From Tsukamurella tyrosinosolvens (GTDB lineage Bacteria > Actinomycetota > Actinomycetes > Mycobacteriales > Mycobacteriaceae): DNA of 64,000 nt. The notes beneath the pieces were generated by a model. That model was given only the letters and a program-made list of their open reading frames with translations, was not told where the DNA came from and made no database searches. The stretch lies in assembly GCF_900104775.1 (NCBI RefSeq), contig NZ_FNSA01000003.1, forward strand, positions 4,464,001 to 4,528,000. The letters run 5' to 3'. The first letter of the stretch is position 1. Every line of letters begins with the position of its first letter. Below are positions 32,487-41,200 of this stretch, one piece after another. Position numbers and translations under genes: made by a program.

Positions 32487-33491
32487 TCACGCCCGGTCGC
32501 GCCCCGACCAGCGCATCCGCGACCACGGCAGCGCGATGCCGGACGGGTCGTCCACGAGTCGCGGCCGCACCGGTTCCGCCGGTTCGGTGTGCTCGGCCAG
32601 GGCGCGCAGGTAGCGGTGCCCGGTGTCCGGGAGCACCTGCACGGTGGCGTCGACCGGGTCGCCGTGGCCCTGCTCGTACCCCGCGACGACGTGCCCGGCG
32701 CCGGAGGAGAGCCCGGCGAAGAGGGCGTGTTCGCGGAGCAGCCGGTGGGTGCCGGCGCGGGCCACCTCGAAGGACACCCAGTGGATCACGTCGTAGAGCC
32801 CGTGCCGCACGTTGTCGAACGGGATCGACGAGCCGATGCCGGCGATGAGCATGGCGGGGTCCTCCACGTGCTCGGCGCCGAAGGTGACACTGCCGAAGGG
32901 CTGCACCCCGACGAGCTGCACGGCCAGCCCCGCCTCTTCGAGGCCGAGCCGCAGCGCGCCACTGGACACGCCCGAGCCGACGGGCGCGACGAGCCGCACG
33001 GAGGCGACGCCCTCCGCGGCGAGCTGGGCCGCCGCTGCGCGGGCGATGTCCCGGTAGCCGAGGTAGTGCACCGGGTCGTGGTACTGCCGCATCCAGTGCA
33101 GCGACGGGTCCTGCGCGAGGAGTTCGGTGATGCGACGGACGCGGCGGTCCTGGTCGAGCTTGAGCGAGGCCGACGGCGGCATCTGCTCGAGTTCGACTCC
33201 CAGGGCGAGCAATTGGACGCGCAGGCCCTCGTCGATCGTGGTCGATCCGACGATGCGGCACCGCACGCCGGCCTCGTGGCAGGCCAGCGCGAGCGCGTAC
33301 GCGTAGATGCCCGACGAGGAGTCGATGACAGTGCCGCCCGGCCGGACCCGGCCCGCGTCGAGGGCGGCGCGCAGCGCGGCTCGCGCGGAGGCGACCTTCA
33401 TCGACTCGAACCGCAGGAGGTACCGGTCGTGCGCGCCGCGGAGGAGGGCCGGACGGCTCAGCGCCTCGGCGATGTGGCCGTGGATCCTCAC
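32487..33491 (-). CDS. Cysteine-synthase-like PLP-dependent enzyme of Zur operon
   Basis: A 334-residue fold-type II PLP enzyme, related to cysteine synthase and SbnA. The Schiff-base Lys is Lys32 (FESMKVASA). The substrate loop, normally T-S-G-N-T, reads SSSGIY at 58-63, so the Asn that contacts PLP and substrate carboxylate is missing. The phosphate loop is VGSGVSSG near 175, and the C-terminal LPDTGHRYL near 295 is typical of the family. A beta-replacement (or related elimination) on a phosphorylated hydroxy-amino acid is the reasonable inference, since a GHMP kinase gene overlaps it by four bases (GTGA). By analogy SbnA uses O-phosphoserine to build siderophore precursors. It is last in the Zur-controlled operon. 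It is not a housekeeping cysteine synthase; the real substrates are unknown. Confidence 0.7.
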   Translation of the reverse strand: MRIHGHIAEALSRPALLRGAHDRYLLRFESMKVASARAALRAALDAGRVRPGGTVIDSSSGIYAYALALACHEAGVRCRIVGSTTIDEGLRVQLLALGVELEQMPPSASLKLDQDRRVRRITELLAQDPSLHWMRQYHDPVHYLGYRDIARAAAAQLAAEGVASVRLVAPVGSGVSSGALRLGLEEAGLAVQLVGVQPFGSVTFGAEHVEDPAMLIAGIGSSIPFDNVRHGLYDVIHWVSFEVARAGTHRLLREHALFAGLSSGAGHVVAGYEQGHGDPVDATVQVLPDTGHRYLRALAEHTEPAEPVRPRLVDDPSGIALPWSRMRWSGRDRA

Positions 33492-34408
33492 GCGGCACCG
33501 CCGATCGCGATCGGGGCGTCGTCCACGCGGAAGCCCACGGCGCGCACGCGGGTGCAGGTGCGCCGCAGGCGCTCCCGCGGGTGCTCGCGCTCGAAGAGCA
33601 GGCCGGCGACGTTCCCGGAGTGCGCCACCTGGACGCCGAGCGCGTCGCCGCGCTCGGCGGCGGCGATCAAGCGCTCGAGGCCGGGCTTGTAGTGGCGGGT
33701 CTGGTTGAGCAGCGCGCTGCGGGTCGCGACGGCGGCCACGGCGGCGGCGTCCCCGGCGGCGACCGCCCGACGCAGGCGGGCGCGCAGGTCCTCGTACTCC
33801 CCCACGTCGCCGTCGCCGGCCGTCCGCAGCGTCAGGGTGTCGACGGGGCCGCCGAGCACGCACCGCACCAGCAGCATCGGGGGCAGCGCGGCCCCGAGGT
33901 CCTCGATGACGTGACCGTGCCGGTGCGCGAACAGGATCGGCCGGTCCGCCCACAGCGGGTCGGAGGCCCCCTCCGCGGCGACGGCGAGCCGCGCGACGGT
34001 GTCGGCGTCGAGCTCCACGTCCGCGCAGTCGGCGACGGCGCGGACCGCCGCGAGGACGTCGGCGGTCGAGGACCCCAGTCCCAGTCCGACGGCCGTCGTC
34101 CGCGCGATGCGGAGCTCGCCGCCGGTACATCGGAGCGCGTCGTGCTCCCGCAAGTGGGCCAGCGTGGCCTCGGCCGCCCTGCGCGCCTTGTCCAGGTCGC
34201 GTTCGCCGACGGTGGTCCGTGCCCGCACGGCGCCGGAGGCGTCCGGGGCGAAGACCGCCACGGATCCGACGGTGCCGATCGGCACCGTCACGAGCCCCGG
34301 GCACTCGCCCTGGACGCGGCAGCGGAACCGGCCCTGCAGGAGCTCGCCGTGGTGGCCCGTGCTCCGGCCCACGCCACGTCCGCGGGAACCGGTGCGCGGG
34401 ATGCTCAT
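33488..34408 (-). CDS. GHMP-family kinase, PduX-like, of Zur operon
   Basis: A 306-residue GHMP kinase. The N-terminal STGHHGELLQG (16-26) corresponds to the CGEL-type motif of PduX L-threonine kinases, and the ATP loop GLGLGSSTAD lies at 108-117. The C-terminal part has VAHSGNVAGLLF, similar to the family's third motif. It should phosphorylate a hydroxyl group of an amino acid such as threonine, serine or homoserine. The next gene is a PLP enzyme that would use such an activated substrate, so the two are a likely biosynthetic pair. No cobalamin genes are near, which argues against PduX's role in B12 synthesis. ATGA overlap with the MFS gene. Confidence 0.7.
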   Translation of the reverse strand: MSIPRTGSRGRGVGRSTGHHGELLQGRFRCRVQGECPGLVTVPIGTVGSVAVFAPDASGAVRARTTVGERDLDKARRAAEATLAHLREHDALRCTGGELRIARTTAVGLGLGSSTADVLAAVRAVADCADVELDADTVARLAVAAEGASDPLWADRPILFAHRHGHVIEDLGAALPPMLLVRCVLGGPVDTLTLRTAGDGDVGEYEDLRARLRRAVAAGDAAAVAAVATRSALLNQTRHYKPGLERLIAAAERGDALGVQVAHSGNVAGLLFEREHPRERLRRTCTRVRAVGFRVDDAPIAIGGAA

Positions 34409-35610
34409 CCGACGGCCTCCGCGGTGCGGGCGCCGCGCAGCGCGCGCCGGGCGAAGACGGCGGCCAGCGCCGTGGCGCCGCCCAGGACGAGGCCGACGCC
34501 CGTCCAGCCGCCGAGCGCGAGGGCGCCGCCGGCGAGGGAGGCGCCCGCGAAGACGCCGACGCTCTGCGCGGCCCCGTTGAGCGAGAGGACGGTGCCCCGC
34601 ACCGGCCCCGCGCCCCGCACGAGGGTGGTGGTCACCGCGGCGGCGATGACGGCGTGCGAGGCCGAGACCAGGGCGACCATCGGCCATGCGACGGCGACGT
34701 GGGGCGCGGTGTAGAGGGCGACCATCGCGACGGCGGCGACGAGGATCGCGGCGAGTACCGTGCCGAGCAGGCGGTCCGCCCCGCGGTCCTGCATCACCCT
34801 GCCGCCCAGGAAGTTCCCGAGGAAGAAGGCGAGGCCGGAGGTGGCCCACACGAGGGAGAACCAGCCCGTCCCGATCCCGAAGCGCTCACCGAAGGCGGCG
34901 GCGATGTACGCCAGAGACCCCATGAAGGCGAGGGTGCGCAGGAGCGAGACGGCCAGGGTGTCCAGGCCGCCGGGGATCGACCGGACGGTGCGGAAGGCCT
35001 GGAGGTAGCTCACCGACGTCTGCCCGCCGCGGGGGTCGCGGCGCCGCGCCACCAGGACCGCGACCACGAGCAGCACCACTGCCGTGGCGGCCATGTCGGC
35101 GCGCCACCCCCACAGCACGGCGGGCAGCGCGAGCACCGGCGCGGCGAGGACCGCGGTCAGCGTCATGGTCGACGAGACCAGGGTCGCGGCCCGGGCGGAG
35201 GCCGCCGGGGAATCGAACCGGTCGGCGGCCATCGCGGACACCGCCGGGTTGAGGACGGCCGTGCCGGCACCGATCAGCAGGCAGAAGGCGATCCAGGCGA
35301 CGGTGCTGCCCTGGAGCGCGAGCCCGCAGCCCAGCGCGAGGACGAGCAGCGCGAGCGCCGCCACCGACGAGCGCGAGAGCCGGTCGAGCAGGGGCGCGGC
35401 CGCGACGCCGACCAGCAGGGCCGCGACCCCGCCGAGGCCCCGCAGGCCGCCGATCAGGTCGACGCCCGCGTGCGCGTCGGCGGCGATGGCGACGAGGAAG
35501 TTCGCCATCACGGTGAACGGCACGAGCCCCAGTGCGGCGGCGGCGAGCATCGGCCAGATCGCGCGGACGAGTACCCGATCGGGCAACGGCCGATCCGCGG
35601 CCGCACTCAC
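34405..35610 (-). CDS. MFS transporter of Zur operon (putative metallophore exporter)
   Basis: A 401-residue major facilitator protein with about twelve hydrophobic segments in two halves, separated by a basic loop (VARRRDPRGG) near residue 195. The AAPLLDRLSRSSVAAL loop between helices 2 and 3 corresponds to motif A. In comparable metallophore clusters an MFS protein exports the newly made chelator, as CntE does for staphylopine, so export is inferred here. It starts with GTG in a GTGA overlap with the DUF364 gene. Confidence 0.75.
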   Translation of the reverse strand: MSAAADRPLPDRVLVRAIWPMLAAAALGLVPFTVMANFLVAIAADAHAGVDLIGGLRGLGGVAALLVGVAAAPLLDRLSRSSVAALALLVLALGCGLALQGSTVAWIAFCLLIGAGTAVLNPAVSAMAADRFDSPAASARAATLVSSTMTLTAVLAAPVLALPAVLWGWRADMAATAVVLLVVAVLVARRRDPRGGQTSVSYLQAFRTVRSIPGGLDTLAVSLLRTLAFMGSLAYIAAAFGERFGIGTGWFSLVWATSGLAFFLGNFLGGRVMQDRGADRLLGTVLAAILVAAVAMVALYTAPHVAVAWPMVALVSASHAVIAAAVTTTLVRGAGPVRGTVLSLNGAAQSVGVFAGASLAGGALALGGWTGVGLVLGGATALAAVFARRALRGARTAEAVG

Positions 35611-36413
35611 GGGGCACTCCGGTACAGGTACATCGGCGAGGCGTCCGCGGAGAACTGCGAGAAGGGGAAGTGCTCGGCCGAGAGGGCGGTGAGACCCGCA
35701 CCGAGGAACGCGCGGGCGACGGCGGCGCCGCTCTGCGCGTACACCGCGAGCGGCACGTCCCGCTCCCGACAGGCCGCCAGGATCTCGTCGAAGCTGCCGT
35801 TGCCCAGGGTCATCCCGGTCGCGAGCACCGCGTCGGCCCCGGCGAGCACCGCGCGGTGGTCGTCCGCGACGGGGTCGCCCCAGTGGGTCCGCTCCAGGTT
35901 CCGGTCCGCGAGCAGCGGTTCCGCTCCGCGCTCGCGGATGGCGGCCACCAGGGGATTCACCACGCCGATCAGCGCGACGCGCGTCCCGGGGGCGACGGCG
36001 AGCAGCTCGGCGACCGCGGCGTCACGGGCGACGGCCCGGACGTCGGGGGTGCCGGTGGGCAGCGTCCGGAGCTCGGCGCGCGGGTCGTCCCGGTGCGGCG
36101 CCGCGGCGCCGAGCGCGGCGTCGGCGGCGGCGATCCGCAGGGGCTGCGCGGCGTGGTCGAGCAGTGCGGCCAGGGGCTCGCCGGACAGGTCCGCGACGTC
36201 CGGGTCGAGCTCGCCCTCCTCGAAGGCGCAGGCGCCGAAGGAGTCTCCGACGCGGACGAGGACGTAGCGGTTGCGGTACCGCTGGTCGCTGCCGGCGAGG
36301 CGGGTCCCGTGCGCGACGAAGAAGACACTGCGAGCGACCGCGTCGTCCGCGACCTCGCGCGCGAGATCCAGGACGTCGGCGACGGATTCGGGTGCGGAGC
36401 CGGGTGCGGTCAT
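35607..36413 (-). CDS. DUF364 (putative heavy-metal chelation domain) protein of Zur operon
   Basis: A 268-residue protein matching the DUF364 Rossmann-like family. An N-terminal enolase-like part (VFFVAHGTRLAGSDQRYRNRYVLVRVG) is followed by an Rossmann segment (VAPGTRVALIGVVNPLVAAIRERGAEPLLADRN) given here in outline, then ADAVLATGMTLGNGSFDEIL and the ending LSAEHFPFSQFSADASPMYLYR. The family is found beside metal transporters but its reaction is unknown. In this operon it may act in chelator assembly, metal release or handling. ATGA overlaps link it to the binding protein and to the MFS gene. Confidence 0.7.
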   Translation of the reverse strand: MTAPGSAPESVADVLDLAREVADDAVARSVFFVAHGTRLAGSDQRYRNRYVLVRVGDSFGACAFEEGELDPDVADLSGEPLAALLDHAAQPLRIAAADAALGAAAPHRDDPRAELRTLPTGTPDVRAVARDAAVAELLAVAPGTRVALIGVVNPLVAAIRERGAEPLLADRNLERTHWGDPVADDHRAVLAGADAVLATGMTLGNGSFDEILAACRERDVPLAVYAQSGAAVARAFLGAGLTALSAEHFPFSQFSADASPMYLYRSAP

Positions 36414-37411
36414 CGGGCCGCCCCACTCTGCTCCAGGTAGTCCGCGAGCGCCGCGGCGGCGTCGAGGTTGCGCGGGCCGGCGACCAGCTCGGCGTAGTCC
36501 ACCACCCGGATGCGGTTCTCCCGCACCGCGGGCGAGTCCTTGATCGGCGACGACTGTCGCAGGTAGTCGATCTTCTGCTGCGCGGGCTGCTTGTCGTAGT
36601 CGACGATGACGATCACCTCCGGCTGGGCCTGCACCACCGACTCCCAGCCGACCGAGGTCCAGCGGCCGTCCACGTCGTGCGTCACGGAGCGCCCACCGGC
36701 CAGGGAGACCACCTGGTCGGCGGCGGCGCGGCGGCCCGCGGTGTAGGGCTCCGCCGTCCCCGAGTCGTAGACGAACACCGACGGTTTCACGCTCTTCCGG
36801 TCGGCGCGTTCCTGCAGCGCGCGCTCGCGGGCCCGCAGGTCGTCGACCAGCTTCGCCGCGCGGTCCGGCACGCGGAAGATCGCGCCGAGGTTGGTGAGGT
36901 CGGTGTACGTGTCGGCCAACGGGTTCGCCGCCCGCGCGGCGGGCTTGTCACCGTAGTTGTAGCAGGTCTCCTCCTGCATGTAGCTGTCGATCCGCAGCTT
37001 TCCGAGAGACTCCGGGGTGACGCCTCGGGCGGGGCTGAACCCCGCCTGCCAGCCCGCGAACACCCAGTCCGCCTTGGCGGCCACGAGCGGCTCCTGGGTG
37101 AGGACGCCGTCGCTGAGGATCGGGACCTTGGCGTACTCATCGCGGTACGGGGACTTCGCGATCACGCCGTGCACCGTCTTCGGCAGGACGATGCCCTTGA
37201 TGCGGTCGGTGAGCCCGAGCGCGAACATCTTCTCGATCGCCGAGACGTCGTAGGGCACCGCAGCGGTCGGCGACCGGTACTGCTGCCGCACACCGCAGTT
37301 GGTCACGTCGACGAGGTCCGTCGTGGGTTCGGCGGGGCGCGCGCCGCAGGCGGTGCCGGTGAGCAGCGTGCTCGCCGCGACGGCCGCGGCGAGCAGGGAA
37401 CGGGGTTGCAT
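36410..37411 (-). CDS. FecB-like metallophore-binding lipoprotein of Zur operon
   Basis: A 333-residue Peripla_BP_2-type receptor. Signal peptide and lipobox end at LLTGTAC (Cys22). The mature part keeps family segments (YDVSAIEKMFALGLTDRIKGI, VAAKADWVFAGW, GWESVVQAQPEVIVIVDYD). Two cysteines (VTNCGVRQQY and EETCYNYGD) lie in the ligand-binding lobe and may form a disulphide. It should deliver a metal-chelate to the FecCD permease encoded first in this operon. AGGAT-type spacing precedes ATG 37411, 28 bases after the ATPase stop. It differs strongly from the IdeR-linked binding protein at 85-1071, which suggests another ligand. Confidence 0.8.
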   Translation of the reverse strand: MQPRSLLAAAVAASTLLTGTACGARPAEPTTDLVDVTNCGVRQQYRSPTAAVPYDVSAIEKMFALGLTDRIKGIVLPKTVHGVIAKSPYRDEYAKVPILSDGVLTQEPLVAAKADWVFAGWQAGFSPARGVTPESLGKLRIDSYMQEETCYNYGDKPAARAANPLADTYTDLTNLGAIFRVPDRAAKLVDDLRARERALQERADRKSVKPSVFVYDSGTAEPYTAGRRAAADQVVSLAGGRSVTHDVDGRWTSVGWESVVQAQPEVIVIVDYDKQPAQQKIDYLRQSSPIKDSPAVRENRIRVVDYAELVAGPRNLDAAAALADYLEQSGAAR

Positions 37412-37439
37412 CGGTCGATCCTTTCGATCGGTCGGGGTT

Positions 37440-38189
37440 CTACAGTTCGAAGCGGATGCGCGGCGGGCCGGACGACCCCGCGGCGACCACCGGCCGCACG
37501 CCGTAGACCTCGGCGATCCGGTCGGCCGTGAGGACCTCGGCCGGGGTACCGGTGGCGGCGACGCGCCCGCCGTCGAGGAGCACGAGGCGGTCGCAGCTCT
37601 GCGCGGCGAGGTCGATGTCGTGGATGGCGGTGACGGTCGTCTTGGTGGTCGCCCGCAGGAGGCGCAGCAGGTCCAGCTGGTGCCGGACGTCGAGGTGGTT
37701 GAGCGGCTCGTCGAGCAGGAGGACGGGCGTGTCCTGCGCGAGGGCGCGCGCGATGAGGATGCGTTGCCGCTCGCCGCCGGACAGCCCCAGCACGCTGCGG
37801 TGCCGCAGGTGGGTGGCGCCGACCGCGGCGAGCGCGGCTTCGCAGGCCCGCGCCGCGACGGCGCTGCCGGCGTCGCCGTGCGCGAACCGGCCGAGCATGA
37901 CGGTCTCACCCGCCGTGAAGCCGAGGTGGCCGGTCTCGCTCTGGGTGACCGCGGCGACGCGGCGGGCGCCGTCGCGGCGGCGCAGCGCGCCGAGCTCCGT
38001 GCCCCCGATCCGCACGGAGCCGGAGGCCGGGGTGATCGCGCGGTACAGGCAGCGCAGCAGGGTCGACTTGCCGCTGCCGTTGGGCCCGATCAGCCCGACG
38101 TGCGCGCCCGCGGCGATGTCGAGGGAGACGTCGTGGAGCACCCGGCTTGCGCCCAGGTCGACGGTGATCCGATCCAGTTCGATCCTCAT
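37440..38189 (-). CDS. FecE-like ABC transporter ATP-binding protein of Zur operon
   Basis: A 249-residue ATPase with Walker A GPNGSGKST, Q-loop TQSETGHLGF, signature LSGGERQR, Walker B VLLLDEPLNHLD and the switch His in AIHDIDLAAQ. It powers import by the overlapping permease. ATGA overlap with the permease gene. Confidence 0.9.
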   Translation of the reverse strand: MRIELDRITVDLGASRVLHDVSLDIAAGAHVGLIGPNGSGKSTLLRCLYRAITPASGSVRIGGTELGALRRRDGARRVAAVTQSETGHLGFTAGETVMLGRFAHGDAGSAVAARACEAALAAVGATHLRHRSVLGLSGGERQRILIARALAQDTPVLLLDEPLNHLDVRHQLDLLRLLRATTKTTVTAIHDIDLAAQSCDRLVLLDGGRVAATGTPAEVLTADRIAEVYGVRPVVAAGSSGPPRIRFEL

Positions 38190-39253
38190 GCCGCGCCGCC
38201 CAGGAGCCCGCCGCGGCGCCGGAGGAGGACGACGAAGACGGGGACGCCGACGAGCGCGGTGACGATGCCCAGCGGCAGCTCGCGCGGCGCCACCACCAAC
38301 CGGCTCAGCAGGTCCACCCACACCAGCAGCAGCGCGCCGACGAGCGGGGCGAGCAGGAGCACCGCCCGGTGGGCCGGGCCGACGATCATCCGGACGGCGT
38401 GCGGGACCACGAGGCCGACGAAGCCGACGGTGCCCGCGACCGCGACGAGGACCGAGGTCATGACCACGATGACGACGAACAGCATCCGCCGGGCGCGGTG
38501 CGGATCGAGGCCGAGGGCGGCGGCGGCCTCGTCGCCCTGGGCCAGGACGTCGAGCACGCCCGCGAGGCGCCCGGTGATCGCGGCGCAGACCGCCACCGTC
38601 GCCGCGACGAGCGGGAGCACGGACCACTGCGCTCCCCCGAGCCCGCCCAGCAGCCAGAACATCACGGACCGCGCGGCGTCGCCGACGGGGTCGAAGAAGA
38701 CGATCGCGCCGGCGAGGCCCTGGAAGGCGAAGGCGAGCACCACCCCCGTGAGCACCAGCCGGACGGGGCTGAGGGCACCGTCGGACGTGCGGCTGAGCAG
38801 GTAGACGAGGAGCGAGGCGAGCACCGCCGTCGCGAAGGCGGCCCCGGCGGTGCCGGCGATACCGAGGCCCGCGACCAGCCCGGTGGTGACGACGAAGCTC
38901 GCGCCCACGGAGGCACCGCTGGAGATCCCGAGGATGAAGGGATCGGCGAGCGGATTGCGCACGAGCGCCTGGCAGGCGACGCCGGCGATCGCGAGGCCGG
39001 CGCCGACGAGGGCGGCGAGCAGGACGCGCGGCACGCGCAGGTCCCAGAGGATCGAGTAGGTCGAGGCGTCCTCGCGGGCGAGGGCACCGCCGGTCAGCGC
39101 GGCCCAGAGCAGGCGGCGGACGTCGTCGAGCGGCACCGTCGCCGCGCCCTGCGACACCGCGACGGCCATCGACAGGACGAGGGCCGCAGTGAGGGCTCCG
39201 GCGAGGAGGAGCGGCGAGGCGCCGGCGCGGCGGCCGAGCGGGGTGGAGGGCAC
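38186..39253 (-). CDS. FecCD-family ABC transporter permease of Zur operon
   Basis: A 355-residue permease with about ten helices. Family motifs are LRVPRVLLAALVGAGLAIAG with ACQALVRNPLADPFILGISSGASVG (read as consecutive segments), ALGLDPHRARRM, and GTVGFVGLVVPHAVRMIVG. Importers of this class move siderophores, cobalamin, haem or other chelates. The start is GTG 39253. No ribosome site is seen, but a TAACTT hexamer lies six bases upstream, so the message is probably leaderless. The Zur-type palindrome covers this promoter, which places the whole operon under zinc control by inference. Confidence 0.9.
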   Translation of the reverse strand: MPSTPLGRRAGASPLLLAGALTAALVLSMAVAVSQGAATVPLDDVRRLLWAALTGGALAREDASTYSILWDLRVPRVLLAALVGAGLAIAGVACQALVRNPLADPFILGISSGASVGASFVVTTGLVAGLGIAGTAGAAFATAVLASLLVYLLSRTSDGALSPVRLVLTGVVLAFAFQGLAGAIVFFDPVGDAARSVMFWLLGGLGGAQWSVLPLVAATVAVCAAITGRLAGVLDVLAQGDEAAAALGLDPHRARRMLFVVIVVMTSVLVAVAGTVGFVGLVVPHAVRMIVGPAHRAVLLLAPLVGALLLVWVDLLSRLVVAPRELPLGIVTALVGVPVFVVLLRRRGGLLGGAA

Positions 39254-39259
39254 GCGACA

Positions 39260-39265
39260 AAGTTA
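39260..39265 (-). promoter_or_regulatory. -10 element of the Zur operon
   Basis: On the minus strand TAACTT lies six bases before GTG 39253. Its outer four bases are within the Zur-type palindrome, so a bound Zur would block polymerase. Confidence 0.55.
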
Positions 39266-39286
39266 ACGACAATCATTTTCGTTAAC
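39262..39286 (-). promoter_or_regulatory. Zur-type zinc operator
   Basis: A 25-bp palindrome with arms GTTAACGA and TCGTTAAC around a core AATCATT. Eleven of twelve symmetric pairs match. The core and spacing agree with the actinobacterial Zur box, whose centre reads AAAATCATTTT or AAAACGATTTT flanked by inverted arms. The AT-rich site stands out sharply in this DNA. It overlaps the -10 of the seven-gene operon reading left, the position for zinc-dependent repression. Fur-family alternatives such as FurA cannot be fully excluded. Confidence 0.8.
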
Positions 39287-39289
39287 AAA

Positions 39290-39301
39290 GACGCATGCGT
39301 C
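39290..39301. repeat. 12-bp palindrome next to Zur box
   Basis: GACGCATGCGTC is self-complementary and is followed by a further GCGTC copy. It begins four bases beyond the Zur box and lies 25 bases past the stop of the ybdK-like gene. It could be part of that gene's terminator or a second operator. Confidence 0.35.
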
Positions 39302-39326
39302 TATGCGTCACACCGCCGGAGAGCGG

Positions 39327-40490
39327 CTACGGCAGCACGAGCTCGCTCGTCACCGACCGCACCACGTCGCGATAGGTGTCCACGTTGCAGACACCGCCCG
39401 CGACGGCACGCTGCCGCTGATAGGAGGCGCCGCGGCGCGCGATGTCCGCCACGGCCGCCAGCTCACGGGAGCAGCCGAGGCGCTCGGCGATGGGCGCGAG
39501 CTGCTCGAGCAGGTCCTCGAGGTCTTCCGTGACCAGGCGCTCGTTGTTGTCCGCGTCCTGGATGATGATCGCGTCGAGGCCGTACCGCGCGGCGCGCCAC
39601 TTGTTCTCCTGGACGTGCCACGGCGGCAACGTCGGCAGGGTCTCCCCCGCGTCCAGCCGTGCGTCCAACCACACGACGAGGCAGTGGATGAGGGCGACGA
39701 CCGCCTCGAGCTCCGCGAACGACGACATGCCGTCGCAGATCCGCACCTCGATGGTCCCGAGGTGGCACGCGGGGCGGATGTCCCAGCGGATCTCGTTGAG
39801 GTGGTCGATGATCCCGGTGGTCTTCTGATCGTGCACGAAGCGCTCGAACTCGCTCCACCGCTCGAACTGGAAGGGCAGACCCGCGGTGGGCAGCTGCTGG
39901 AACATCATGGCGCGGGTGCTGGCGTAGCCGGTGTCGTGGCCGCCCCACATGGGGGAGCTCGCCGACAGCGCCAGGAGGTGTGGGTAGTGGTTGAGCAGCG
40001 CCGAGATGATCGGCAGCACCTTGTCGCGGTGGTTCACGCCGACGTGCACGTGCACGCCCCAGATGAGCATCTGCCGGCCCCACCACTGGGTGCGGGCGAT
40101 CAGCTCGTCGTAGCGCGGATTGTCGGTGAGCTGCTGCGCGTTCCACTGCGCGAACGGGTGGGTGCCCGCGCCGAACAGGTCGACGCCCATCGGGTCGGAC
40201 GTCTCCCGCACCGCCGCGATGATGCGGGCCAGGTCGGCCATCGCCTCCGCGGTGTTCTCGCAGACGCCGGTCACCACCTCGACGGTGTTGCGCAGCATTT
40301 CGGAATGCACCTGCGGCGCGATGTCCGGGTGCGCCGCACGGATCCCGTCGAACAATTCCCCGGCCCTACTGACCAGGTCCGCGGTCTCCCGGTCGACGAG
40401 AGCGAATTCCCACTCGACGCCGATCGTCGGCCGCGGCGACGCCTCGAAGGCGACGGTCTCGATGGCTAACCGACCTTGATCACGCCGCAC
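39327..40490 (-). CDS. YbdK-type carboxylate-amine ligase (glutamate-cysteine ligase 2 family)
   Basis: A 387-residue ligase of the GCS2/YbdK family, the positional match of M. tuberculosis Rv0433. Motifs include RPTIGVEWEFALVD, LLRNTVEVVTG-like EMLRNTVEVV, GRQMLIWGVHVHVG, the GYASTRAMMFQQLPTAGLP stretch and PPWHVQENKWRAARYGLDA. Family members join glutamate and an amine or cysteine using ATP; the true product in actinobacteria is uncertain because these bacteria use mycothiol. No ATG is near the conserved N-terminus; GTG 40490 gives the usual length and overlaps sodC by 25 bases. Confidence 0.85.
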   Translation of the reverse strand: MRRDQGRLAIETVAFEASPRPTIGVEWEFALVDRETADLVSRAGELFDGIRAAHPDIAPQVHSEMLRNTVEVVTGVCENTAEAMADLARIIAAVRETSDPMGVDLFGAGTHPFAQWNAQQLTDNPRYDELIARTQWWGRQMLIWGVHVHVGVNHRDKVLPIISALLNHYPHLLALSASSPMWGGHDTGYASTRAMMFQQLPTAGLPFQFERWSEFERFVHDQKTTGIIDHLNEIRWDIRPACHLGTIEVRICDGMSSFAELEAVVALIHCLVVWLDARLDAGETLPTLPPWHVQENKWRAARYGLDAIIIQDADNNERLVTEDLEDLLEQLAPIAERLGCSRELAAVADIARRGASYQRQRAVAGGVCNVDTYRDVVRSVTSELVLP

Positions 40491-41200
40491 GCGATGCGGC
40501 CGCCGGCGTCGCCGGTGTTGAGGGTGGTCTCGTCGGGCACGGGCTGGCCCGGAACGACATTGGTGTAGCGCGCCGACGGGATGTTGCCGAAGTTGTCGGG
40601 GCCCGCGTGGATCATGAGCGCGTTGCCGTCGGTGTTCTTCTTGATGTCGGCGAGGGTGAAGGCGCCGGTGCTGGTGACGGTCTGGCCCGTGCCGTTGGCG
40701 TTGACGTAGACCGAGACCAGGTCGCCCGTCATGGGGTGGCCGGAGGCGCCGGGCTTCTGCCAGTGGCCGCCCGCGGAGCCGAAGTTGGTGGCCGATCCCG
40801 GGGCGCCGTTCTTGGCGACCGAGTTCGGCTCGCACTTGCCCACCTCGTGGATGTGCATGCCGTGGAAGCCCGCGGGCAGGCCGGTCACGCGGACGTCGAT
40901 CACCACGACGCCGTCCTTCTCGGAGAAGGTGGCCTTGCCGGCGCTGCTGCCGTCGGGCTTGACGAGCGAGGCCTCCGCGGCACCGGCCGACGGTGCGCTC
41001 TCGCCCGGCTTCTCCTCGCCGTGGGCGGCGTTCGGGTCCAGGCTCCGGACCGGGCCCTGACCGGGCACCGTCGCGCCGGTGACGACCGCGGGGTTCGTTC
41101 CGGGCGTGTCCGAGGGCTTCTCGTTCGTCGTACAGCCGGCCAGGGCGATAGCCGCCACCGGAAGGATCGCGATCGGGGCGAGGAACTGACGCTTCGTCAT
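40466..41200 (-). CDS. sodC: Cu/Zn superoxide dismutase lipoprotein
   Basis: A 244-residue secreted Cu/Zn superoxide dismutase. Signal and lipobox end at AIALAGC (Cys22), followed by a 60-residue Pro/Gly/Ala linker. The copper and zinc ligands are visible in GFHGMHIHEVGKCE (two His), GHWQK, GHPMTGDL and MIHAGPDN, and the disulphide cysteines in GKCEPN and RIACGVI. It removes superoxide outside the membrane. AAGGAG precedes the ATG. It is followed directly by the ybdK-like gene, as in M. tuberculosis. Confidence 0.93.
   Translation of the reverse strand: MTKRQFLAPIAILPVAAIALAGCTTNEKPSDTPGTNPAVVTGATVPGQGPVRSLDPNAAHGEEKPGESAPSAGAAEASLVKPDGSSAGKATFSEKDGVVVIDVRVTGLPAGFHGMHIHEVGKCEPNSVAKNGAPGSATNFGSAGGHWQKPGASGHPMTGDLVSVYVNANGTGQTVTSTGAFTLADIKKNTDGNALMIHAGPDNFGNIPSARYTNVVPGQPVPDETTLNTGDAGGRIACGVIKVG

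What the first reader, a model, noticed from the sequence alone, without database searches (positions are those of the whole stretch)
32487..39286. Zur-controlled seven-gene operon: a probable undescribed zinc metallophore synthesis and transport system
Seen: a leftward unit from 39253 to 32487. The genes are FecCD permease, FecE ATPase, FecB-like lipoprotein, DUF364, MFS transporter, PduX-like GHMP kinase and cysteine-synthase-like PLP enzyme, with five of six junctions overlapping by ATGA or GTGA. A Zur-type palindrome covers its promoter. Known: siderophore clusters with SbnA-type PLP enzymes use phosphorylated amino acids, MFS proteins export such chelators, and FecBCD-type importers bring them back. 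Inferred: a small amino-acid-derived zinc chelator is made by kinase plus PLP enzyme (with DUF364), exported by MFS and re-imported by FecBCD. There is no NRPS, no opine synthase and no nicotianamine-like gene, so the chemistry should differ from staphylopine-type zincophores.
Basis: partly seen in the sequence, partly recalled or inferred. Interest (0 to 1): 0.88.

Follow-up and report, generated by a model that had tools for sequence, protein, structure and literature searches.

The report
Zur-controlled zinc-chelator operon of actinobacteria
A seven-gene operon in a Tsukamurella bacterium, with close relatives in many other actinobacteria, very probably makes, exports and re-imports a small zinc-grabbing molecule when zinc runs short, and a single changed amino acid in one of its enzymes suggests which building block is used.

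Summary
Seven same-strand genes (FecCD, FecE, FecB, DUF364, MFS, GHMP kinase, SbnA-like PLP enzyme) run 39253-32487 behind a palindrome at 39262-39286. The host is Tsukamurella. Zur control is well supported by comparison: an own-genome scan for the palindrome hits two places, this operon and a CobW/COG0523-type gene, a classical Zur target. Of 92 related loci from at least 17 genera, 76 carry a match of 9/11 or better to the Streptomyces Zur motif, against 1 of 92 for the reversed motif and about 3 for shuffles; iron (IdeR) boxes do not exceed chance. DUF364, PLP enzyme, exporter and importer travel together. New: one loop residue of the PLP enzyme is Ser in 75 of 75 loci with the kinase and Thr in 22 of 22 without, read here as phosphothreonine versus phosphoserine use. 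Best explanation: the kinase makes a phospho-amino acid, the PLP enzyme swaps the phosphate for another amino acid's nitrogen, and the aminopolycarboxylate, perhaps finished by DUF364, is a zincophore. Product, zinc binding and regulation are untested. Ten searches of open papers listed no description; the EDDS zincophore genes could not be compared.

The parts
39289..39302 (.). second perfect palindrome AGACGCATGCGTCT just upstream of the Zur box; role unknown
   Evidence: the only exact copy in the whole genome; exact or nearly so in the 11 Tsukamurella promoters shown
39262..39286 (.). Zur-type operator palindrome
   Evidence: 13 of 15 fixed bases of the actinobacterial 21-bp Zur consensus
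39283..39288 (-). possible -35 element TTGTTA (read by eye)
   Evidence: sequence; inference
39261..39266 (-). possible -10 element TTAACT (read by eye, 16-base spacer), implying a nearly leaderless transcript with Zur bound between the elements
   Evidence: sequence; inference. C. glutamicum Zur sites overlap -35 or -10/-35 regions and three of its targets are leaderless (PMC2823685 passages)
38186..39253 (-). FecCD-type ABC permease
   Evidence: PF01032 E 9.8e-83
37440..38189 (-). FecE-type ABC ATPase
   Evidence: PF00005 E 1.3e-31
36410..37411 (-). FecB-type substrate-binding protein, probable lipoprotein
   Evidence: PF01497 E 2.7e-14; solved relatives 4mlz, 4n01; lipobox-like TAC seen by eye in the sequence
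35607..36413 (-). DUF364 protein
   Evidence: PF04016 E 5.2e-12 over residues 135-220; profile hit to 3npg
34405..35610 (-). MFS transporter, probable exporter of the product
   Evidence: PF07690 E 4.8e-25
33488..34408 (-). GHMP-superfamily small-molecule kinase
   Evidence: PF00288 and PF08544; invariant glycine/serine loop (G108, G110, S113, S114) and Asp150
32487..33491 (-). SbnA-like PLP-dependent beta-substitution enzyme; Lys32 conserved, Ser173 linked to the presence of the kinase
   Evidence: PF00291; profile best solved match SbnA 158 bits

Best explanation
This is a zinc-starvation operon for a small chelator (zincophore). Shown by comparison: the promoter carries an actinobacterial Zur operator, so zinc-loaded Zur should repress it. 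Inferred: when zinc is scarce, the GHMP kinase phosphorylates a hydroxy amino acid, more likely L-threonine than L-serine. The SbnA-like PLP enzyme removes the phosphate and joins the amino nitrogen of a second amino acid to the beta carbon. This gives an ethylenediamine-type aminopolycarboxylate, which is a good zinc ligand by chemistry. No SbnB-type dehydrogenase is found in the genome and no lyase lies in the operon, so the adduct is probably kept rather than cleaved to a diamino acid. DUF364 may add or condense a further group. The MFS protein exports the chelator; FecB, FecCD and FecE bring the zinc complex back. Likelihoods: Zur control 0.93; chelator made, exported and re-imported 0.75; phospho-amino acid plus amino acid chemistry 0.6; threonine as the phosphorylated substrate 0.45.
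For: Zur: the own-genome scan gives two places only, this promoter and the start of a CobW/COG0523-type gene (PF02492 E 5.7e-54), and 0 for the reversed pattern. Weaker palindromes lie before znuA and before an ArsR-type plus Fur-family gene pair. Of 92 loci, 76 have >=9/11 of the S. coelicolor Zur motif (PMC5472717 passages) against 1 of 92 reversed and about 3.2 shuffled. IdeR boxes match chance, except L055. Module: among 92 loci PLP 89, FecB 75, kinase 69, a FecB or family-5 (OppA-type) binding protein 81, kinase next to PLP in 66 of 67; an MFS gene within 2.5 kb of the cluster in 87 of 92, against 1 MFS place in the 639 kb farther out. In the genus the operon comes and goes as a unit: DUF364 in 12 of 16 genomes, and the four without it also lacked the kinase. 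Enzyme: the PLP profile finds SbnA first (158 bits) and CmnB next (138); [quoted passage not shown] Coupling: Ser/Thr at position 173 follows kinase presence in 97 of 97 loci, and in 5 of 7 added PLP enzymes. No PF02423 (SbnB type) hit in the genome.
Against: No expression, metabolite or zinc-binding data. The PLP enzyme scores 111 bits against the SbnA cut-off of 350, and SbnA's Ser185 is replaced by an invariant Gly172, so substrates may differ. Mesorhizobium L033 and L034 break the Ser/Thr rule. The tree gives only 2 independent pairs for the kinase on well-supported branches (6 on all), too few for significance, and other PLP columns also separate the two groups, less perfectly. The changed position lies in the loop that binds the PLP phosphate (recalled), so the 'room for a methyl group' idea is a guess. 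DUF364 has no known reaction; none of the models shown for the FecBCD proteins is passed at its cut-off (for FecE only the best 25 of 192 were shown). 16 of 92 loci scored below 9/11 for the Zur motif; some of these are cut contigs, and one (L048) has an intact palindrome with a different centre base.
Confidence: 0.68

Rival explanations
1. A member or close variant of the known [S,S]-EDDS zincophore pathway of Amycolatopsis japonicum, so the kind is already known.
For: EDDS production is repressed by zinc through Zur, and its structure pointed to a route other than NRPS or NIS (passages of PMC9252823 and PMC4993170). Three Amycolatopsis species hold relatives of this cluster (L072, L093, L104).
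Against: As I recall, EDDS assembly needs lyase-like and decarboxylase steps; an ArgH query hit one ORF in the 100 loci, far from the cluster in L109.
Confidence: 0.15
2. An iron-siderophore operon, with the Zur box incidental.
For: FecBCD transporters mostly carry iron-siderophore complexes (recalled). L055 (Austwickia), which has DUF364 and FecBCD but no kinase or PLP gene, has an IdeR-like site at 15 of 19 and no Zur match.
Against: Over the other 91 loci the IdeR scores follow the shuffled distribution, while Zur motifs are strongly over-represented.
Confidence: 0.07
3. Zinc import plus a side pathway: FecBCD takes up a chelate made by other organisms, and kinase, PLP and DUF364 modify or supply something inside the cell.
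For: No enzyme of the operon has a proven synthetic role. Kinase plus PLP pairs occur in Mesorhizobium, Bosea and Azospirillum plasmids with no FecBCD annotated nearby.
Against: An MFS gene is at the cluster in 87 of 92 loci, and the import type switches between FecBCD and a family-5 peptide-type system while DUF364, PLP and MFS stay.
Confidence: 0.12
4. A cobalamin salvage operon: BtuCDF-like importer plus a PduX-like threonine kinase.
For: The FecCD protein also hits BtuC models; PduX makes threonine phosphate for B12 (recalled).
Against: The BtuC, BtuD and BtuF models shown are far below their cut-offs. The PLP enzyme belongs to the cysteine-synthase fold, not that of the B12 decarboxylase CobD (recalled). 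The operator is Zur-type.
Confidence: 0.03

Closest known systems
Staphyloferrin B front end: SbnI (serine kinase) and SbnA
   Same: dedicated amino-acid kinase and SbnA-like PLP enzyme inside a metallophore pathway; SbnA is the nearest solved relative
   Different: Zur instead of Fur control; GHMP-type kinase; no SbnB in the genome; no NIS synthetase in the operon; DUF364 present
[S,S]-EDDS zincophore of Amycolatopsis japonicum
   Same: Zur-controlled actinobacterial zinc chelator made outside NRPS routes; predicted product class alike
   Different: aes genes not available for comparison; no lyase in this operon
Staphylopine/pseudopaline opine zincophores (cnt)
   Same: MFS exporter plus ABC importer (recalled); some relatives here use a family-5, OppA-type importer
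   Different: no nicotianamine-synthase-like or opine dehydrogenase gene among the seven; the extra methyltransferase in relatives looks HemK/PrmC-like, weakly
Coelibactin (Streptomyces) and sidAB (C. diphtheriae)
   Same: Zur-controlled metallophore or presumed metallophore loci in actinobacteria (PMC5472717 and PMC6711530 passages)
   Different: those use NRPS (sidAB also a polyketide synthase); none among the seven genes here
Pacidamycin-type diaminobutyrate cassette: threonine kinase, cysteine-synthase-like enzyme and lyase (recalled; paper not held)
   Same: kinase plus PLP enzyme; the Azospirillum relative L031 even has ArgH and ATP-grasp nearby
   Different: no lyase in this operon, and a Zur operator plus transporters

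Membership tests
zincophore system (synthesis, export, import under Zur) | Zur operator at the promoter | tested here: met
   by sequence comparison only:
zincophore system (synthesis, export, import under Zur) | synthesis, export and import genes inherited together | tested here: met
zincophore system (synthesis, export, import under Zur) | a secreted molecule that binds zinc | not testable with these tools
   needs metabolite work
SbnA/SbnB 2,3-diaminopropionate route | PLP enzyme above the SbnA model cut-off (TIGR03945) | tested here: not met
   111.3 bits against 349.95
SbnA/SbnB 2,3-diaminopropionate route | SbnB-type dehydrogenase (PF02423) | tested here: not met
   none in the own genome; the control rang in 8 of 14 genomes
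opine zincophore | staphylopine-type opine dehydrogenase (PF10100) | tested here: inconclusive
   no hit in the own genome, but the control rang in no genome; none in the operon
PduX L-threonine kinase | match to a PduX model or threonine specificity | tested here: inconclusive
   only GHMP superfamily shown; no PduX model among the hits
putative F420-0 ABC transporter (TIGR03868/03869/03873) | scores above the three cut-offs | tested here: not met
   161/392, 263/437 and 235/372 bits
EDDS (aes) pathway | orthology to aes genes | not testable with these tools
   sequences and paper not held
DUF364 (PF04016) | Pfam gathering score | tested here: met
   46.1 bits against 23. Among divergent relatives L042 and L027 pass, L041 is just below (22.0), L026 gave no hit at E 0.001

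The most novel reading that the evidence does not exclude
A new class of zincophore, widespread in actinobacteria: a Zur-controlled aminopolycarboxylate built from a phosphorylated hydroxy amino acid by an SbnA-like enzyme and completed by DUF364, in two chemical versions. Clusters with the kinase would use O-phosphothreonine (Ser173 in the PLP enzyme) and give beta-methylated chelators. Clusters without it would use O-phosphoserine from primary metabolism (Thr173). This would give DUF364 its first biochemical role.
Probability: 0.35. Interest if true: 0.86.

Novelty: new variant of a known kind. Interest (0 to 1): 0.72.

Why it matters
Few zincophores are known, and those I could name are mostly opine- or NRPS-derived. 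If this reading is right, a compact, NRPS-free zincophore pathway sits in many Streptomyces and other actinobacteria (the 80 best of 453 DUF364 relatives confirmed in one scan all lie in actinobacteria; the other 373 were not looked at), where cluster finders built on NRPS or opine genes may miss it. It would give DUF364, a family with solved structures but no proven function, a testable role. The kinase/Ser-Thr coupling predicts a cluster's building block from one residue.

Tried and rejected
The strict box pattern found only this site in the genome, so a looser one was used. The viral-contig scan for the kinase found no relative. An ATP-grasp enzyme like that of the g23 clusters is not evident in the own genome: three weak hits only. 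The phylum sample with the DUF364 profile found 6 of 396 genomes, but few candidates per genome were scored, so it is a lower bound. The idea that the relatives' methyltransferase is nicotianamine-synthase-like was tested on 8 proteins and dropped. Iron control was tested and dropped. B12 salvage was considered and rejected. My first architecture table lost adjacent genes through an overlap filter and was redone on domain coordinates. The first MFS count (95 of 100, whole loci) had no background, so I recounted near and far from the cluster. I first took L135 and L137 as lacking a kinase; their 'hypothetical' genes are GHMP kinases. Structure prediction of DUF364 and the kinase never ran: the machine was busy at all 11 tries.
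Full report
Observation. Seven complete reading frames lie on the minus strand from 39253 to 32487. Pfam confirms FecCD, ABC ATPase, FecB-type binding protein, DUF364, MFS, GHMP kinase and a PALP-type PLP enzyme. Five of six junctions overlap by four bases; with public start choices it is four of six. The palindrome at 39262-39286 is the only such site in the window, with no match in 100 shuffles.

Conservation in the genus. Of 201 family genomes 13 have the kinase: 11 in this genus (own genome included) and 2 in another genus, g23. The 10 other same-genus loci fetched all have the seven genes in the same order. A DUF364 search found it in 12 of 16 same-genus genomes; the four without it (G125, G158, G168, G198) were also without the kinase. 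So the operon is gained or lost as a unit. The palindrome is kept in 12 of 12 Tsukamurella sequences compared, with changes in its arms. In L048 the arms are intact but the centre base differs, so it scored 8/11.

Zur control. The pattern TAAYGANAATNATTNTCRTTA with up to 3 mismatches hits two places in the 5.28-Mb genome, and the reversed control none. The second place is directly upstream of a CobW/COG0523-type gene, a classical Zur target (C. glutamicum cg0794, PMC2823685 passages). Weaker palindromes precede znuA and an ArsR-type gene followed by a Fur-family gene, the znr-zur arrangement. For relatives I used the motif tGaNNatSatNNtCa derived from ChIP-chip in S. coelicolor (PMC5472717 passages). 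From 100 loci I dropped 8 as copies of genomes already present (L029, L049-L054, L076). Of the remaining 92, 76 have a site of at least 9/11 within 400 bases upstream of a cluster transcription unit, against 1 of 92 for the reversed motif and 3.2 of 92 on average for Markov shuffles; 45 of 92 reach at least 10/11 against 0 and 0.2. IdeR scores follow the shuffled distribution; the one high value is L055 (Austwickia), which has DUF364 and FecBCD but no kinase or PLP gene, no Zur match, and an IdeR-like site upstream of FecB. It works as an internal contrast. The loci are related, so these counts are not independent, but they span at least 17 genera.

A widespread module. In the 100 loci studied (the window, those 80, and 19 plasmid and genome loci) the PLP enzyme is present in 97, FecB in 83, FecCD and FecE in 80, the kinase in 77 and a methyltransferase in 46. 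An MFS gene lies within 2.5 kb of the cluster in 87 of 92 loci, while the 639 kb farther out hold one such place; of the five loci without it, L065, L078 and L107 begin or end at the cluster. Two of the three loci without PLP (L094, L122) end near the cluster; the third is L055. A second type has ATP-grasp, DUF364 and PLP genes and, in 5 of 6, a dipeptide epimerase and a methyltransferase, with an OppA-type (SBP_bac_5) or FecBCD importer (L026, L027, L041-L044). There the DUF364 label is weaker: L042 and L027 pass the Pfam cut-off, L041 just misses it and L026 gave no hit. The importer is exchangeable while DUF364, PLP and exporter stay.

The enzymes. A profile of 26 PLP enzymes matches SbnA best among solved structures (158 bits), then CmnB (138), ahead of cystathionine and cysteine synthases (134 and below). 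The catalytic Lys (Lys32, by alignment) and SbnA's Tyr152 (Tyr137 here) are invariant in those 26; SbnA's Ser185 is Gly172 here. SbnA joins O-phosphoserine and glutamate into N-(2-amino-2-carboxyethyl)-L-glutamate, and SbnI supplies O-phosphoserine (PMC12414870 passages). The kinase family keeps GHMP motifs and has only distant solved relatives. DUF364 has a two-domain fold with a conserved pocket, and the authors of its first structure proposed a role in metal-chelator synthesis (PMC2954201 passages); no reaction is known. The genome has no SbnB-type hit; its four lyase-family genes lie outside the window.

Kinase/PLP coupling. Over 97 loci (8 duplicates included; 89 without them) residue 173 of the PLP enzyme is Ser in 75 of 75 with the kinase and Thr in 22 of 22 without it, the best of all columns. 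Seven more distant PLP enzymes were added: five agree and two Mesorhizobium ones (L033, L034) do not. On a tree of 96 rows built without that column the kinase needs 6 changes and the residue 7. Independent pairs number 2 on well-supported branches and 6 on all; over 200 random pairings on the supported branches the residue mostly goes the same way in both pairs, in a few it does not differ in one, and it never goes the other way. The sign test cannot reach significance with so few. The contrasts are L084 and L100 against Nocardiopsis, and L026/L027 against L041-L044. I infer that the kinase's product is the PLP enzyme's substrate and that the substrate differs with and without the kinase. Threonine is my favoured kinase substrate; serine or homoserine remain possible.

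Mechanism. Zinc loss frees the promoter; kinase and PLP enzyme make a beta-amino-linked amino acid adduct with an ethylenediamine core and several carboxylates; DUF364 may extend it; MFS exports it; FecB captures the zinc complex and FecCD/FecE import it. Only the genetic and regulatory layout is supported here; the chemistry and transport direction are inferred.

Known and new. It works like a zincophore system. It does not meet the defining features of the SbnA/SbnB route; the opine test was inconclusive, but the operon itself holds no opine gene. It could not be compared with EDDS. Searches in open papers listed no description of this cluster that I could recognise from titles and abstracts; DUF364 itself occurs in only 7 papers. 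Eight papers were seen as passages only.

Noticed in passing
window 39289-39302: A perfect 14-base palindrome AGACGCATGCGTCT sits 2 bases upstream of the Zur box; it is the only exact copy in the genome and is largely kept in the genus. A second regulator may bind here.
   Followed up: partly
L055: Austwickia chelonae has DUF364 and FecBCD without kinase, PLP or the searched MFS types, with an IdeR-like site upstream of FecB, suggesting an iron version of the import part.
   Followed up: partly
L031, L033, L034, L134, L137: Kinase plus cysteine-synthase-like pairs on plasmids of Azospirillum, Mesorhizobium, Bosea and Sinorhizobium, some with ATP-grasp or lyase genes: probably related diamino-acid pathways of unknown product.
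   Followed up: partly
window 36410-39253: The closest named models for the three transporter genes are the 'putative F420-0 ABC transporter' families, all below cut-off; that name may cover metallophore importers.
   Followed up: no
L029: NZ_LR134468, labelled plasmid 26 of T. tyrosinosolvens NCTC13231, carries this operon with housekeeping neighbours (peptide deformylase, Mnh antiporter); it may be a mislabelled chromosomal piece.
   Followed up: no
window 40466-41200: A superoxide dismutase family gene (annotated so) lies upstream of the operon, beyond a glutamate-cysteine-ligase-like frame (named by eye); whether it responds to zinc was not examined.
   Followed up: no
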